Below are positions 4,448 to 15,345 of a DNA stretch of 64,000 nucleotides, piece after piece. This stretch comes from Favolaschia claudopus (taxonomy: Eukaryota > Basidiomycota > Agaricomycetes > Agaricales > Mycenaceae), in the NCBI GenBank assembly GCA_037176885.1, contig JAWWNJ010000160.1:1-64000 (forward strand), in the 5' to 3' direction. The notes beneath the pieces are model-generated. The model worked only from the letters and a program-made list of their open reading frames with translations. It did no database searches and was not told where the DNA came from. The position numbers were made by a program, and so were the translations under genes. Positions within the stretch are counted from its first letter, which is position 1, and every line of letters begins with the position of its first letter.

Positions 4448-4901
4448 TACGACTCAATACCATTGCTGCTGTCTTTACCGCTCCCCGTGCCCTTGCCGGC
4501 CGCTGCTGCGTCCAAGATTTCAAACTCTACCTCCCACTACTTTGTGTCTAAGCCAGTCCGAGACGTCATCGCCCTGCTCAACGTCGCATTTAAATCGTGG
4601 CCGCAACTTTTGTTCACAGCTCATACTTCCCCATTATCTCTCGGATTCTCTCCCCTTGTTCAGCAAAGCAGTGAAGTTCAGTCAAGAATCAAGATTCGAG
4701 ATCCGAGACAAGGTTCTGCGGCCTCAGCAGGCAAGCTCTGGTGTATGGATTGAAGAGAGAGTGTTCATGCGGAATGGGGTGTCCAATTGGGAAGGGGATG
4801 GAAGGGTTCGTGTACAGGTGCGTTGATTACTGGCCTTCATATTGGCCCATGCTTATAGACCGATTTACGATCTTATGCGCGGGCGAATGATAGTTTGTCT
4901 A

Positions 4902-5336
4902 TGGTGCGGATCACTTAGTCACCACCACATTTGTGCAAGTCCCAAATCCGCCGGAGGCGAAATCTTTTACGAAAATGCACTTTGTTGCCTATTTTTTGCC
5001 TTCAGAACGGTCAAATCTGTGAGCAAATGTCACTCTTTGGTTGTAAGTTTCAATCTAAAGGGCTTACAATATGCTTTCTGAACAGCATATTGAAGGTAAG
5101 AGATCCTCCCAACCCACTTCTACCAGCTTTGTGAGGCATATGTGGTGTGCAGTCCCAATTCAACTCCAGGAAAAATCTGTTACTCAGTCAGATCTGTTCT
5201 CATTTAGAATCCCTCTTGGGAAAGTGTTTCTCTTACTGAAATGAGCATTTGAGCAAGAGGAATAAGAAATCCGGTTTTTTTTTGGGTGAGTAATAGCGGT
5301 TGTCACAAAGTGGTGGTGACTAAGTGATCCGCACAA
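4902..5336. mobile_element. TA-target MITE (family D), 435 bp
   Basis: The two ends are inverted copies of a sequence containing GTGCGGATCACTTAGTCACC, and each end is bordered by TA (4900-4901, 5337-5338). There is no coding capacity. TIRs plus TA duplication indicate a Tc1/mariner-type non-autonomous element. Related left ends occur near 35819 and 47703. Confidence 0.75.
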
Positions 5337-5338
5337 TA

Positions 5339-6802: not shown

Positions 6803-7057
6803 GGCTTTGCAAAGAGTCATTAAAGCAATTGAATGGCTACCAAGGCGTACCCACCGGCAAAATCCGAGACACCGGCTAGGGGGAGGGGTGTCGGCGACCT
6901 CTTATTTCACTTTTCCGACCAAGGTTCAGAACCTTTCAAAAATGTGTTTGGAAGGGTCAAGAGGAAAAAGACGAAAAAATATTTGTTTATATAATATTCT
7001 CGGGTCTTGCCGATTGGGGGGGGGGATTGTTGGGCAAATGAGTAGACCGGTGACCGA

Positions 7058-7091
7058 GTCTGTCTATGGAGCAAGCTGTCGATAGACAGAC
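7058..7091. repeat. Left terminal hairpin of RecQ/DUF6589 element
   Basis: Arms GTCTGTCTAT (7058-7067) and ATAGACAGAC (7082-7091) are perfect inverted copies with a 14-nt loop, just outside the 73-bp inverted repeat. Confidence 0.75.
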
Positions 7092-7092
7092 C

Positions 7093-7165
7093 GGTCGATC
7101 TGAGTTTGAATTCCCATGACGCGCGAGATACCCCATATGGGATGTTTGTAAGCACTATCAACGGC
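7093..7165 (+). repeat. Left 73-bp inverted repeat
   Basis: Base-for-base reverse complement of 13084-13156. It includes the internal palindrome CCCATATGGG. Confidence 0.95.
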
Positions 7166-8384
7166 CTCGGTAACATATGTAAATAACGCGTCTCTTGTCT
7201 TCTACCGCCGTCTGCGACGCGTCAGCTCACTCTATGCCGCATTTTTCTTGACTATGGACACTCCGGAGGTCCAATTTGACGCTGAGGCCGCTGAACTACT
7301 TCAGGAAATTCGGATATCGCCACTAGAAGAGCTAAAATCACTCGCATCCAGCTTTCTGACTCTCGACGCGCCTCTCGTTGAATACCTGGAATCCCTCGTT
7401 GATAAACACAAAACTATTGCATTAAAATCCTGTTTAATCGTCCAGATAATCTCAAGATACCGAATAATTCCTCGAAAGTTCCAACTCGAAGCCGTTCTCC
7501 GCACTCGACGAAGGCTGCGATGTAATCCTAGAGTCTGGCACTGGCTCCGGCAAAACTCTCTGTCTCATCATCCCGAATCTTCTCTACCCCGACACAACGT
7601 CTATTACGATTTCTCCCCTTAAAAGACTACAAATTCTCCAGGTATGAACTTGTCTCGCTCTGGTCAACCTTCTCGGCAGCCTCTTCTCTCCTGGCAGGCA
7701 TCAGAGCTAGAAGGGTGGGGAATACGAACGGTGTGCATTAACGAGGATACTCCCAGCGATAAAGCTCTATGGACGGTGCGTCCTTCATATCTTTCTCTGA
7801 CAATCTCGCTAACAGGGAACAGAAAATAACTAGCGGCTACTTTCAACATATCATCACCCAACCTGAGCAGCTTCGAATTCACAATGGACATCTTCCTCGC
7901 TTGGCGAAGCTTCTTAACGATCGTCATTTTGTTTGCACTGTGTCTCGCGTCAACGTTGATGAAGCTCATTTCATTTACACCGCCGGGCTCCCACTTTACG
8001 GCGTTCCTGCATTCCGACCTTCCTGGGGAGCTCTCAATCTACTCCGGCTACGTCTTGGCAAGGGAACACCATTACTGGCCATGTCAGCTACTTTGCCGCC
8101 GCATATCAAATGTGCTGTCGTTCGCAATCTCAACTTTGATCCCTCCACCATGTTATCGCTCGAGCTCCCAACCAGCCGTCCAAATATAATCTATTCCACG
8201 CACCGCATCGTTGGCTCGCTTTCCGAATACCGCAATCTCGACTTTCTTGTCTCCGAAACGCCTCGCAAAACACTTGTTTTCCACGATAATACTCAACAAT
8301 GCTCGGATTCTCGCGCTCATCAGAACAAGCTGCTGTCAACTGATATACAGAAGAATGGATTGATACGACACTATCATGCAGGGA

Positions 8385-8976
8385 TGTCACAATCAAGCCT
8401 CGCGCCCCAGGTCTAAGACAAGGGGTTGGGTGGTGCGGTATTAGCTCGAGAAAATAACTGAATAAAAGGACTAGGGGTACAAGAGCGAATAAACTACTCT
8501 ACTTATACTGTCTACTGAACCGTGTGAACTATTAACTACATGCGTACTCTAAGTGTCAAGCGTGTGGGAAACATGTGTTCTGTGGAACGTTCTTCAACCT
8601 GTCGTCATCCATGAGGCTTCCCTCCCTTTATGGCATGGCAAACATGTGGCTCCCATGTTGTTGCAAAAGGACTGTGGTGAACGATGGGAAGGGTGCATTG
8701 TCCTCATGGTTCATACCTGTGACGCAGCAGTGAATGATACAGTGGCGGCGCAATCTGATGCCACCCCCAAAAAAATGATGTGGCCCCAATCAACTCCACT
8801 TGCATCAAAAGTTCCAGAAATGGGCTGTTCTATTTTTAGGGGTGGCATCAGATGGCGCCGCCACTGTAGATAGCGCGTGTGATCATGTGTGTGGACGACG
8901 GTCATGAAAAAGAAGGGCGAGGGCGGTGGATAAGATTAAGGCGTTGTCGCGATAAGATTGTCATTCAATCGTGACA
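8385..8976 (-). mobile_element. Solo LTR inside the helicase gene
   Basis: The sequence starts TGTCACAATCAAG, ends CAATCGTGACA and is bordered by the 5-bp duplication AGGGA (8380-8384, 8977-8981). The helicase frame resumes directly after the second AGGGA. Orientation is given as minus because the end resembles the gypsy LTR start remnant at 51075-51111 (minus strand TGTCACAATTGAATAGC). It has no internal coding region. Confidence 0.85.
8740..8866. mobile_element. TA-target MITE (family F) inside the solo LTR
   Basis: 127 bp with inverted ends CAGTGGCGGCGC, extending about 30 bp with few mismatches, bordered by TA (8738-8739, 8867-8868). Non-coding. This is the innermost level of the nest. 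Confidence 0.8.
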
Positions 8977-10024
8977 AGGGATGTCCAAGGCGTATCTGAA
9001 GCAGGTGTTCGACGATTTTGCGAAGGAAGATGGGGCGTGCAAAATTCTTCACACAACCGAAGGCCTATCAACTGTGAGTGGTCTCGAATTTCAACTTTAT
9101 AAACAATGTAACGTCGTCTAGGGTTTGCATGTGGCGGATGTCGATGTCGTCGTGGATTATGGAGCGCCACGAGCCATGCCAACTGTGATTCAAAGAGGCG
9201 GACGGGCCGGGCGACGCGGTCAACTTTCAGTATACCTTTTGATGGCAGAACCTTGGGTTTATACAGCTTCTCTCGATGCAGTGGACTCCTCCAGCGATGA
9301 CCCGGACAGGCCAATCTCGGGCAGACTCATCAAAAACTCGATGGCTGTCCCCTTCCGCAACCAGTGCTGACAATTCACGGTTTTAGCGCTGAAAATCACA
9401 ACGGATTGGTGCTGCGACCAACCTCACGACACCGAAATCCAATTCGATAAACGAACCTTCTTTCCTGGCCGGTTTATCTACGAAGAGAAGGACGGTAAAA
9501 TATATGCAGGCGACGTCGATGAGCCGGATCGAATTCATCTCAACCCACCAAAAGCGAAGAAGCCGAAGGGCAAAGGTAAAAAGAATAGAAAGGTCGCTGA
9601 TCGCGTCCCTTTACAGGATCAACTGAACGATTGGCTTTCCTCTGCGCATACCACTGATCCCTTACGCGCAGTCCGGCCCCCAACTTTCATCCTTGACGCT
9701 AAATCAATCAAGTCGCTTTCCACTGTCCATCCCGATCGTATGCGCTCGTCAGACGACGTAACTTCCACCCTTGATGAGACACCAGAATGGGCGGAGGAAT
9801 GGGCGTCCAGAGTCTTTTATGCTATCTCCAAATACGACGATGAACTCGTGCAGCGAAGAGCGACCATGCCTCAACGGAAAGTAGGGGGTAAGAAGAAGCC
9901 GCGGAAGGCCACAGAGTTGGAGGCAGATGTGGAATGGGAGCCGCCGGCGAAACGGCAGAGGAAGGGTGCACCACTGGTGGAAGTGTCAACGAATGTACGA
10001 CGCAGTTCACGACTCAACAAATGA

Positions 10025-10619
10025 TTACAATCGTACAACAATTAATATTCAACTGTATTCTTCTGGAAGATCGCCTCGTAATGCCATCGCAGGACATTCA
10101 TCCTCATCTTCTTCAAAACTCAATCCAGCAACCAGCGCCGCCGTCTTCTTGTTGAACGTTGCAAGTGTTGAAGACTTCAATTTTGCCTCCCCAGTACTGA
10201 GATATCAACGGCGGGCTTCTTTTGTGCATTACGAGCTCTTCCGGCTTCAAAAACCTGCAGCTTTTCCTCAGCAATCTTGGCTTGAACTCGCCACACAAGA
10301 TGGGAAGTGTTTGGTGTCGTATGACCGGTGCTTTGGTATGTACGGGCTTCCGAGAACGGTTGTTACTTTCTTTTTGACGGCTTGAATGTGACCGATGGCT
10401 GCAGAAGTATTTCCAAGGCGATCCCATGTTGAATCTAAGCCCTCCACGCGCAATAAATTCTGCGATAGGATCAGTACTCAGTCCAGCAATGAAAGGAAGT
10501 TCAGACCTTCAAATAGCCGATCAAATGTTCGATATTTAAATCAATAGCCATGCAATGTCCAGGGCCTCTTCCATTCAGGCAGATGATCATATTGTCGCGC
10601 ATTATATCTCTGTTTGACC
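10025..10619. other. Region between the convergent genes
   Basis: No recognised coding content between the helicase stop and the DUF6589 stop. An AATAAA near 10453 could serve either strand's 3' end processing but cannot be assigned. Confidence 0.4.
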
Positions 10620-13015
10620 TCAGCAGAAATAGTTTTCATTGATGAAACTGACGCACGCAAACTCTGGCGTCCATACATACTTGAGATTTTGAAGGAAATG
10701 CAGAAGTTCGGTGCAATATTTATTGCACCCAGCGCCGCGATACATCATCGCAAGGTGAGGAAGTAATACCTCGACTCGACCAAAGTCGCCGTCGGAAATT
10801 GCCCGTACCAAAATTGCCACCATGAGTAGGTCTCGAGTGAGTAATTGGAGATTGTGATGTGCGATATCGTCTTTAGGATTCAATGTGGGGCGAGATTGTG
10901 TAGCTGCAGGTGTTGGTTCGGAATCAGAGCCAGAGTCGGAGGATTCGTCGCTGTCTCCAGGTATGTCGACGTCATTAGAGGTTGTGGAAGCCGCATATTT
11001 GTTGATTATTCGATGCGCGATTCGGCGTAAGGTTTCCGGGGTTGGAATGGAAGCAGCGAACGATTTCAGAGTCACGAACCCACACTCTCGCAGCCAAGTG
11101 TTGAGAATGATCCCATCCAGAACCTGCATCAACGCAGCGAGGAGAGTATGATAGTCCGGCTGGTCGTTCCCGAGCCGTGTCTTTTCCATGAGGGCGAAGA
11201 AATATGCCAGGCTTCCAGCATCATTCACGCTGCCACGATGAGTGTGGAGGATGGCCCACATCAGATTCAAACACGCATGAAACAGACCAAACCCGAGCTG
11301 GAATACTTCGCGTCGCTCCACGGATTTATGTCTTGGCTCTCATGGACTGCGCGGACCGAATTCGAGCGTTTGTAAGTTGGTCGTTGTAACTCGGGATTGC
11401 ATATTTACTGAGGGACTCGGGGTCTTGTTTGAGCAGGTGAATATAAATCTCGTCGTGATATTGCAAGTTTCCGAGCACTGTGGCTTCCTCGATAGTTGAT
11501 GCGCGCAGAGGATAGTATTTGGTTTTATAACCAACGGGAATCGGACGACGGGGGATGTGCTGCAAGTCAGGGTGCTTGGAGATCCATTCAAACTCTTCCT
11601 CGTAGGCGGCAAGACGAGAGATCACGAGGATTGTGACCTGATCTAGATATGAGGCGAGATGGTCGAGAGAAGGACGAATGTCGCGGTTATACTGCAGTCC
11701 GGCGAGGGCTCGGAACCGCTTCATCATCGGAGCAAGGAGCATATGCTCGCGTTTCGCGTTCCGAGACAGAAGAGTCCGAATGTACCCGAGGTGACCTTCC
11801 CAACACCACGCTCGCCGACCTGCTCGTAGAAAATGGAACGGCTGACATTGAGATTGTCATATTCGAAGCTATGTGGTTCCTGTACAATGTTGGCAGCGGC
11901 GTCCATACAGAAATCGGCGGAGGCTTCAATATGGCTTTGAACGGAGTAGTAGCCGACCGACAGCGCGCATCGAAAGAGGGCGTCGATTGTTTGCCGCGCA
12001 CAGCCAGTCGACCAGAGGAAGAGGCCGAATGCAGTTTGAAATGCCAAGCAGCGATTTGAATATTGGTAGAGAAGTTGCCGAGTTATCACCTGGCATAACT
12101 GGAATCATTGTCAGAGGTCAAGCGCCCACATAGTTACACAGAACATACCTTGGTAGGATTCTTTTTCTTGTTCTGAATTTTAGCGCGATCTGTTTGGGAT
12201 GCTGCCTCAAGAATTGACGAAAGGAAAGGGATCTGGTCTTCTTCTTCGTCAAGACTCAAGTTCTCCATGAAAGTCGGTGTCACGACTGCAACCCCTTGTA
12301 GAAATGAATTCTTTCGCCCTGGTCTCCATCTCCTGCGCCACTATATCACAGGCAAACTCTTCGAGATGGGGTCTCATGCACTCAAGCAGCTTTGCTTACC
12401 CTTATCATCTGCCATGATATTCTCGATGAGATTCGAGAGTTTATCGCTGTCTTCTCGATACAGGCCGATGCGATAGCGGTCGTATGAGGCGTCCATGGGA
12501 TTAAGAACTTGGTTTAGAATGTCGATCGGGGAAATTCGGTCGTCTCTTAGTGAGGGAAGTAGGTTATCAATTTTAGAGTAATCATCGACTGTACGTCTTC
12601 GACGTGAGGGATTGGGAGTGAAAGTTGGAGTCGAATCGAGAGTGGGATCATCGTATAGGGTGAGAGAATCGACACTGGGCATCTGAGCGCCGTCATGCTC
12701 ATGGTGCGAGTCAGAATTGACTGAAGTAGCAGACCAGGAATGGTCTGGATGTCGTTGTGTTTGGGGACGTGATAACGAAGCAGGGGTGATGGGAGGTCGA
12801 AATGTGAACTCTGACACAACGACTGGAGTTTCAGGGCTTGCAAGAGGCACCTGCGATTCACGAGAAGTCGACGGAAGAGGCAGAGGGTGGTGGTCCTGTG
12901 CAGAGAAAGTAACGGTGCCAGGAATTGGTTTCCGTGGCCTTATTAGAGAGCTTGAGCTGTGGGGATTACTCCCAGCTTGTTCACGAAGGCGTCTGAGTTG
13001 CTCCGAAAGGTCCAT
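10620..13015 (-). pseudogene. DUF6589-domain protein, frameshifted
   Basis: Start ATG at 13015. Exon 1 is 13015-12400 (Ser/Pro-rich, low complexity), exon 2 is 12285-12149, and exon 3 begins at 12098 with GT-AG introns that keep frame. Exon 3 has segments I associate with mushroom DUF6589 proteins: FGLFLWSTGC, SFEYDNLNVS, PMMKRF, RPIPVGYKTKYYPLRAST and NDQLTNARIR. These are followed by FGLFHACLNLMWAILHTH and a C-terminal GAGCNKYCTELLHFL. Single-base shifts near 11760 and two near 11325-11345 break the frame. DUF6589 has no established function. A transposase or RNase-H-like role is my inference from its place in a TIR element and its conserved YDN, His and Glu residues. Domain identity rests on motif memory. 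Confidence 0.75.
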
Positions 13016-13083
13016 GCGCGATGATAGGGCAGAACGAAGTGGATTGAGTCAAAAGTACGTGTTGTTTACATGTATTACCGAGT

Positions 13084-13156
13084 GCCGTTGATAGTGCTTA
13101 CAAACATCCCATATGGGGTATCTCGCGCGTCATGGGAATTCAAACTCAGATCGACC
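13084..13156 (-). repeat. Right 73-bp inverted repeat
   Basis: Exact inverted copy of 7093-7165. It lies 68 bp upstream of the DUF6589 start and may hold its promoter, as the left copy may for the helicase (inference). Confidence 0.95.
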
Positions 13157-13207
13157 AGCCTGTCTATCGACACAAACTCCCCAATGTAAATCTTCGATAG
13201 ACAGGCT
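13157..13207. repeat. Right terminal hairpin
   Basis: Perfect 14-bp stem, AGCCTGTCTATCGA (13157-13170) with TCGATAGACAGGCT (13194-13207), 23-nt loop. The stem core TGTCTAT is shared with the left hairpin. Confidence 0.85.
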
Positions 13208-13878
13208 GGAATCGAGCCTAGCAAATGAGCTGAAACGGTCGGAATTGTGATACCAATGCGTTTGGTCCTGAGCTGATTTTTGACGAAAGCCTGACAATTT
13301 TTGATGGAAATTACCAGATTAGGCGCTTACATAACCCTTACGTAGGGGAGATGGGGGTCAAGAGAGCCTTAATTCACTTTTCCGACCTTGTGTCCGAAAT
13401 TTTAAGAATGGGTACCCCTTGATGGCTACCGGGTTCCGCGAAACTTTGATGGTTCAAAATGTGATGTAAAAATCAAGAGGACCTGCCTGAAATGAAATTT
13501 AGATGCTTCGACTGGGAGCAGCTTTTGTCCGTATCCCTAAGTTTGGACCCTTGTGTAGCCATTAGCCATCCAATGGCTGCATCGCAAACAGGCTAACGAG
13601 GTTCATATAGCTGACCAAAAACGCTGCAACCTGAGCTCACTGAGCACATAACGCGCACCACAGAAATGTGTCGTGTCGGTTGTTGTATATACTGTGACAC
13701 AGCTGCGCTGTTTACATTACAGCAGTTTGCACATGTAATGACACCTCCTGAGTTTTATATGAAGAAAAACACGGTACGTTCTTGACCCTGAATCTCGGTC
13801 ATTTCTGGTCCAATCGGTTTGGTTATGGTATCATTCGAAAGCCCTTAAGCAGGGCTTTTATAACCCGACAGTGATTCT

Positions 13879-14183: not shown

Positions 14184-15345
14184 TTTACGGTTGGCGGGAA
14201 GGCCGCGGTTGGTTTCGACTTCTGATTTCTGTCATCGGCCATTTCGGGAAGTTGTCCGAGCACATCCTTGCATACAAAACCAAGCACCACTTTGCCATAG
14301 GGCTAGTGGGGGTCGATCTGAATACATCAATGTGACACTAAGATACTCAGAAAATGGAATTTATCATGTTAATAGAGCTCGGAACGCTTGGAGGATGGTT
14401 TCTTCCTCAATAAGGCAATGCCGGTTATAGCGGAGACCCGGCCACGCGATCATATGACCCATTATGATTTTCTTTTGCGCCGCGTTATGCGTGAGGGAAG
14501 CCAGTCTGACTTCAGATTGCAGCAGTTAACAGACTGGGGTAGATATAGGCGCTTTGTGCCGCATTTTCAGCGAAAAACAGCGAGGTTCTGCTTGGTAATT
14601 TAAGTATGGACAGAGATAATGCTATATAGCCCATCCAGACAATGCTTCAATTGTCGGAGAGCCCAAATGGATATAAACTTCGAATGCAATGTTGTAGGAT
14701 GATCCGTACGCTCCCGCTTCGTTCCGCTCTCTTCCTTCCTATTTCATATTTCCTTTGCTTCAGTACTGTTGCATCACCATCACCACCACCTTACCGACCA
14801 TATATACTTCTCCTTACCTTCGTTGCCCGCTAGTCGTTTGTTCCCCACCTCGACTAGCATGCGTATACTATTCCATTACTTTTCCTACCTATACTTACCT
14901 TCTCGTAGTCACTAATATACTCTAGGTACCTAGTCGTTTGTTCCCCACCTCGACTAGCTCACTAATATACTCTAGTTGGTATTGATCTCCATGTAGTTGC
15001 CCACAGAAAAAATCAGACTGCCTTTGGTGTCGTCAAACACAAAGAGAAAACAAGTCAAAGAAGTCATGTGATTGCGTTGCTCTGCTGATTTCCCATCAAA
15101 GCCCATTATTTCAAGTCCCTCTGTGATCTAACGGCTTTTGAGGTGGAAGATATTATTTATTAATACAATACATATGTACCTACACCACAAACCTCGGCCA
15201 AATGATGACCATGGCAAATGGCACTTGGTTTTGTGTACGAGGTGAGCTAGTACAGCCACTCGGCCGAGTACCCGAAGGTCCGATGACAGAAATCGAAAAT
15301 CAAAATCAACCGCGGCCTTCCCGCCAACCGTATACAAGGTTAGGC
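14184..15345. repeat. Inverted repeat pair, possible degenerate TIR element
   Basis: About 14184-14310 and 15205-15345 are diverged inverted copies sharing GGTTGGCGGGAAGGCCGCGG and TTTCTGTCATCGG. The interior is non-coding. No target duplication was identified. Confidence 0.5.

What the first reader, a model, noticed from the sequence alone, without database searches (positions are those of the whole stretch)
7043..13220. A DNA transposon pairing a RecQ-like helicase with a DUF6589 protein
Two convergent genes, no others, sit between a perfect 73-bp inverted repeat, terminal hairpins and a 9-bp direct repeat GCAAATGAG. Start codons are about 210 bp from each end, so the inverted repeats likely also serve as promoters. 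Neither family is an established transposase. RecQ-like and DUF6589 proteins are numerous in mushroom genomes; this locus offers a concrete explanation for both expansions, namely that they travel together. The pairing suggests a transposition mechanism using a helicase, as in helicase-assisted or replicative mobilisation. To my knowledge this has not been described, though I cannot search.
Basis: partly seen in the sequence, partly recalled or inferred. Interest (0 to 1): 0.92.

Follow-up and report, generated by a model that had tools for sequence, protein, structure and literature searches.

The report
Helicase-encoding DNA transposon in a mushroom
This is a decayed copy of a jumping gene from a wood-rotting mushroom that carries its own cutting enzyme and a DNA-unwinding enzyme; the element is real and best fits a kind already described, and the new detail is that its "unknown function" protein has the predicted shape of a DNA-cutting transposase.

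Summary
Window 7043-13220 is a 6,178-bp element with TAG...CTA ends, a 73-bp perfect inverted repeat, end hairpins, an exact 9-bp target duplication (GCAAATGAG) and two convergent genes, RecQ-like and DUF6589. One insertion has precise pre-insertion sites. Of 34 DUF6589 loci found, 24 have a RecQ-like hit within 6 kb, against 0.14 expected. In 13 other Agaricomycete species the two proteins share a contig.

The interpretation needs correcting. DUF6589 is predicted to fold as a DDE transposase: Hermes, P element, RAG1 and Tn5 lead the structural list, and conserved D298, D458 and E694 sit where a catalytic triad should. A DDE transposase plus helicase with 9-10 bp duplications is the published description of AcademH, known from animals and fungi. 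So this is most likely AcademH, not a new mechanism. Homology to an Academ transposase could not be tested. Both genes of the window copy are broken.

The parts
7043..13220 (.). whole transposon, 6,178 bp, TAG...CTA ends
   Evidence: ends fixed by the 9-bp duplication and by other copies with the same ends
7034..7042 (.). 9-bp target-site duplication GCAAATGAG, left copy
13221..13229 (.). 9-bp target-site duplication GCAAATGAG, right copy
7077..7165 (+). left inverted-repeat arm (perfect part 7093-7165, 73 bp)
13084..13172 (-). right inverted-repeat arm (perfect part 13084-13156)
7043..7104 (+). left terminal hairpin region
   Evidence: fold of the first 62 nt, -30.2 kcal/mol by RNA parameters, no shuffle control
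13155..13220 (-). right terminal hairpin region, different in sequence from the left one
   Evidence: fold of 66 nt, -30.9 kcal/mol by RNA parameters, no shuffle control
7254..10024 (+). RecQ-like helicase gene, broken in this copy
   Evidence: ORFs; Pfam Helicase_C; RecQ family in the C21 copy
8385..8976 (.). nested insert read as a solo LTR (TGTCAC...GTGACA) interrupting the helicase gene, 5-bp duplication AGGGA
   Evidence: alignment to the C21 copy; termini; 8400-8720 recurs elsewhere, often as pairs about 6.3 kb apart
10049..13015 (-). DUF6589 gene (proposed DDE transposase), frame broken in this copy; annotated as P0017, 842 aa; low end read by eye from the sequence
   Evidence: Pfam PF20231; P0017; model of relative P0003

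Best explanation
It is a decayed copy of a DDE-type cut-and-paste DNA transposon that encodes a DUF6589 transposase and an accessory RecQ-like helicase, most likely a member of the AcademH lineage. SHOWN: element ends, 9-bp duplications, precise empty sites for one insertion, linkage of the two genes within the genome and on shared contigs in other species, and a predicted DDE transposase fold of DUF6589. INFERRED: the DUF6589 protein binds the hairpin-bearing ends, cuts them with a D298/D458/E694 site (P0003 numbering) and joins them to target DNA at 9-bp staggered positions; host gap repair makes the duplication. The RecQ-like helicase probably helps by unwinding the strongly self-pairing ends or by processing the strand-transfer and gap-repair intermediates. 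Short copies of 408-416 bp with the same ends and 9-bp duplications suggest the enzymes also act in trans. The window copy itself can no longer make either protein intact.
Against: No Academ reference transposase was available, so sequence membership of Academ is untested. Foldseek alone gave no match at E <= 0.001 (best 0.073, Hermes), and identities to solved transposases are only 7-11%. The triad is placed by secondary structure and conservation, not by residue alignment to a solved active site; other acidic residues (for example D653, D668) are as conserved. 10 of 34 DUF6589 loci had no helicase hit in reach, and 5 of the 24 pairs are head-to-head, not convergent. One locus, present as two inverted copies on C132, has both ends but no duplication. 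A role for the helicase in transposition is not shown.
Confidence: 0.77

Rival explanations
1. A separate, unnamed superfamily of DDE transposons that merely resembles AcademH in carrying a helicase and making 9-bp duplications; DUF6589 would then define a new transposase superfamily.
For: No held paper holds the term DUF6589; the four listed with PF20231 have titles unrelated to transposons (listing only); no link to Academ was found. The fold is nearest to Hermes and P element. No Academ sequence could be compared.
Against: Helicase content, 9-bp duplication, inverted repeats and a basidiomycete host all coincide with the AcademH description.
Confidence: 0.17
2. KolobokH, a fungal transposon lineage with a RecQ helicase.
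For: KolobokH encodes a RecQ helicase and has been found only in fungi (passage).
Against: [quoted passage not shown] Here the duplications are 9 bp without TTAA, the ends are 5'-TA, and the helicase is a separate convergent gene.
Confidence: 0.02
3. A replicative or rolling-circle (Helitron-like) element whose helicase drives mobilisation.
For: A helicase is encoded and strong hairpins lie at the ends.
Against: Exact target duplications, inverted repeats and precise empty sites and a DDE fold. No Helitron or PIF1 domain among the Pfam hits of the pieces scanned.
Confidence: 0.02
4. Two host gene families that sit together by chance or by tandem duplication, inside an unrelated inverted repeat.
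For: Three of the copies (C160, C151, C79) share the same flanks and so are one insertion, so the 24 pairs are not 24 independent events.
Against: Independent insertions with different duplications carry the same pair (C21, C52, C222, C75, C32); pairing is about 170 times the chance figure.
Confidence: 0.01

Closest known systems
AcademH (Kojima 2020, Mob DNA 11:15; paper not held, known from citing passages and from recall)
   Same: DDD/E transposase plus helicase; 9 or 10 bp target duplications; inverted repeats; reported from Basidiomycota
   Different: No tested difference. Gene arrangement here is convergent (head-to-head in 5 divergent pairs); how AcademH genes are arranged was not seen in any call. 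Sequence relation to Academ transposases untested.
KolobokH (fungal Kolobok lineage with RecQ)
   Same: RecQ helicase in a fungal DNA transposon
hAT (Hermes) and P element transposases
   Same: DDE fold; nearest solved structures
   Different: 8-bp duplications and no helicase gene (both recalled, from no call); 8-10% identity in the structural alignments
Telomere-linked RecQ helicases of fungi
   Same: RecQ-like genes in multiple copies
   Different: Subtelomeric gene family (passage on Mycosphaerella graminicola), not inside a transposon with target duplications

Membership tests
AcademH | encodes a DDD/E transposase | tested here: met
   Predicted fold of DUF6589 relative P0003 matches only DDE recombinases in the first 22 rows; conserved D298, D458, E694. 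Prediction, not assay.
AcademH | encodes a helicase with DEAD and Helicase_C domains | tested here: met
   PF00270 and PF00271 in related copies and relatives; RecQ family TIGR00614 best NCBIfam hit for the C21 pieces
AcademH | 9 or 10 bp target-site duplication | tested here: met
   exact 9 bp at 9 of 10 resolved sites; exception C132
AcademH | terminal inverted repeats | tested here: met
   89-nt arm in the window; 297 and 304 nt arms in C222 and C75
AcademH | transposase sequence falls in the Academ clade | not testable with these tools
   no Academ reference sequence found in the libraries used; the defining paper is not held
AcademH | Cys8 zinc finger of Academ transposases (recalled, from no call) | not tested
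   no dedicated search; no such cluster is evident in the consensus
KolobokH | RecQ helicase | tested here: met
KolobokH | TTAA 4-bp target duplication | tested here: not met
   9-bp duplications without TTAA
KolobokH | 5'-RR...YY-3' ends | tested here: not met
   5'-TAG...CTA-3'
hAT | 8-bp target duplication (recalled) | tested here: not met
   9 bp at 9 of 10 sites
hAT | Hermes-like transposase fold | tested here: inconclusive
Helitron | no target duplication or inverted repeats (recalled) | tested here: not met
   both are present

The most novel reading that the evidence does not exclude
DUF6589 founds its own DDE transposase superfamily in Agaricomycetes that has independently recruited a RecQ-like helicase, and the helicase is required for transposition, for example to open the hairpin ends or to set the 9-bp stagger.
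Probability: 0.15. Interest if true: 0.7.

Novelty: new member of a known kind. Interest (0 to 1): 0.42.

Why it matters
It proposes a function for a large unknown-function family: one search gave 522 relatives (120 listed; those listed with a name are called hypothetical, unnamed or DUF6589 proteins). It also explains why RecQ-like and DUF6589 genes are common in mushroom genomes: at least in part they belong to a transposon, not to host gene expansions. A systematic screen already reports helicase domains as the commonest transposon-derived domains in fungal proteins (passage in PMC10799480), so such genes should be masked before counting host helicases. The system also makes a published idea testable, that the helicase goes with the 9-10 bp rather than 3-4 bp duplications in Academ (passage in PMC10045372).

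Tried and rejected
KolobokH was rejected on duplication length and ends. Helitron-like or rolling-circle transposition was rejected because of exact duplications, precise empty sites and the DDE fold. Chance neighbours were rejected by the pairing count, which assumes uniform placement; the helicase list behind it was capped (150 of 205 candidates scored) and the DUF6589 list came from one 176-aa piece. A genome-wide search with the PF20231 profile was asked six times and never answered.

Contig matching across species used 65 of the 120 rows listed and 46 of the 69 (all the named ones; most unnamed metagenome rows left out), giving 109 distinct species-and-contig pairs, against all 80 rows. 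56 of the 74 named helicase rows are in species with a listed DUF6589; 39 of these 56 did not match. Same contig does not prove the same element. A first merge of loci assumed a wrong strand convention and was redone. No tree was built.

Papers: passages only were seen of PMC10799480, PMC8290104, PMC10045372, PMC9587614, PMC12210899, PMC12730594, PMC4522978 and PMC9674265; PMC10905254 only in a search listing with the start of its abstract. Kojima 2020 (AcademH) and Muszewska 2017 are not held and are known from citations and recall. Searches behind 'not in print': in the held open-licence library only.

Full report
WHAT IS THERE. The element at 7043-13220 is real. Its ends read TAG...CTA and are flanked by GCAAATGAG on both sides. 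A perfect 73-bp inverted run lies inside an 89-nt arm. The outer 34 and 48 bp differ between the two ends, but each end folds into a long hairpin built on CTGTCTAT/ATAGACAG (RNA parameters, no shuffle control). Two convergent genes fill the interior: a RecQ-like helicase from 7254 on the plus strand and a DUF6589 gene from 13015 on the minus strand.

THIS COPY IS DECAYED. Compared with the C21 copy (97-98% identical in the long aligned blocks), the window helicase carries a 592-bp insert at 8385-8976 with a 5-bp duplication AGGGA and TG...CA ends. Its part 8400-8720 recurs elsewhere, often as pairs about 6.3 kb apart, so I read it as a solo LTR. About 111 bp near 9341 that C21 has is missing, and the DUF6589 frame is split where C21 has one 491-aa open frame. 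The C21 copy carries its own nested insert of about 680 bp in the helicase gene. The same window insertion occurs on three contigs (C160, C151, C79), with flanks 100% identical by the tool's rounding over the 743 and 681 bp searched: haplotypes or a duplicated segment.

IT MOVES. The first 101 bases of the element gave 40 matches in its own genome, the cap of scored candidates (40 of 424), so a lower bound. Insertions with both ends resolved have exact 9-bp duplications at 9 of 10 sites: window GCAAATGAG, C21 GCGGACGGC, C52 AGGCATATC, C402 (same flanks as C95) GTATCGCGG, C382 CCCACAGTC, C222 TTCACAACT, C75 GTCTAGGGT, a second C21 site GGTTCGGCG and C32 GATCCCGCA. The exception is one locus present as two inverted copies on C132, without a duplication. 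The C402, C382 and second C21 copies are only 408-416 bp long, too short for either gene. For the C21 insertion, a 112-nt query made of its two flanks with a single duplication copy matched at all 40 places scored (of 112 candidates), 10 of them identical over all 112 bases and 30 at 98-99%. The element thus inserted cleanly into a dispersed repeat and duplicated 9 bp.

THE TWO GENES TRAVEL TOGETHER. Of the 34 DUF6589 loci, 24 have a helicase hit within 6 kb, 2.2-3.1 kb away, against 0.14 expected under uniform placement; 19 pairs are convergent and 5 head-to-head. Alleles and duplicates are included, so 24 is not 24 independent events, and 10 loci had no partner in reach. Across species, 17 of 74 named helicase relatives outside Favolaschia share species and exact contig length with a listed DUF6589 protein, in 13 species of Mycena, Roridomyces, Lactarius, Flammula and Crepidotus; no helicase row matched a DUF6589 contig length in a different species. 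56 of the 74 are in species with a listed DUF6589, so 39 of those 56 did not match; the DUF6589 lists are partial.

WHAT IT IS. A passage in PMC10045372 states that AcademH makes 9 or 10 bp duplications, AcademX 3 or 4, and links the difference to the helicase or nuclease they encode. PMC10799480 cites AcademH as a low-copy element in Basidiomycota, Ascomycota and Mucoromycota and ties DEAD and Helicase_C domains to AcademH, KolobokH or Helitron. The present element meets every AcademH feature that could be tested. KolobokH, the other fungal RecQ-bearing lineage, fails on duplication and ends. I therefore file it as most likely AcademH, with the caveat that the transposase sequence was not compared with an Academ reference.

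HOW IT WORKS. Most likely cut-and-paste: the DUF6589 protein binds the hairpin-bearing ends, cuts, and joins at a 9-bp stagger. The helicase role is inferred: opening self-paired ends or processing strand-transfer and repair intermediates. Neither step is shown, and excision as such was not observed.

NOVELTY. The kind of element is known. What I did not find in the held library is the identity of DUF6589 as its transposase: no paper holds the term DUF6589, the four listed with PF20231 have unrelated titles, and no link to Academ was found. The library lacks the AcademH paper itself, so this may already be in print there or in Repbase.

Noticed in passing
window 8385-8976: Insert in the helicase gene read as a solo LTR (copies elsewhere often paired about 6.3 kb apart), 5-bp duplication AGGGA.
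   Followed up: yes
window 8738-8868: A 131-bp inverted-repeat element (TACAGTGGCGGCGC ends) nested inside that insert.
   Followed up: no
window 14186-15332 and 4900-5338: Further inverted-repeat elements near the finding (TACGGTTGGCGGGAAGG ends, 1,147 bp; TATGGTGCGGATCACTTAGTCA-like ends, 439 bp).
   Followed up: no
G000 C117, C141, C29, C59, C73: Five DUF6589-RecQ pairs in head-to-head orientation, 29-33% identical to the window pieces: a second gene arrangement. Ends not examined.
   Followed up: partly
L005 (C402), L006 (C95), L008 (C382), L007 (C21): Short non-autonomous copies of 408-416 bp with the same ends and exact 9-bp duplications (one end of L007 reads TGG instead of TAG).
   Followed up: yes
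G000 C132:330251-335860 and C132:about 397120-402735: A related element present as an inverted pair on one contig, with no target duplication.
   Followed up: partly
L084 (C222), C75, C32: Divergent relatives (35-38% identical in the DUF6589 piece) with inverted repeats of about 270-300 bp and the same TAG ends and 9-bp duplications.
   Followed up: yes
G000 C160, C151, C79: The window insertion and its flanks occur on three contigs: haplotypes or a duplicated segment.
   Followed up: partly
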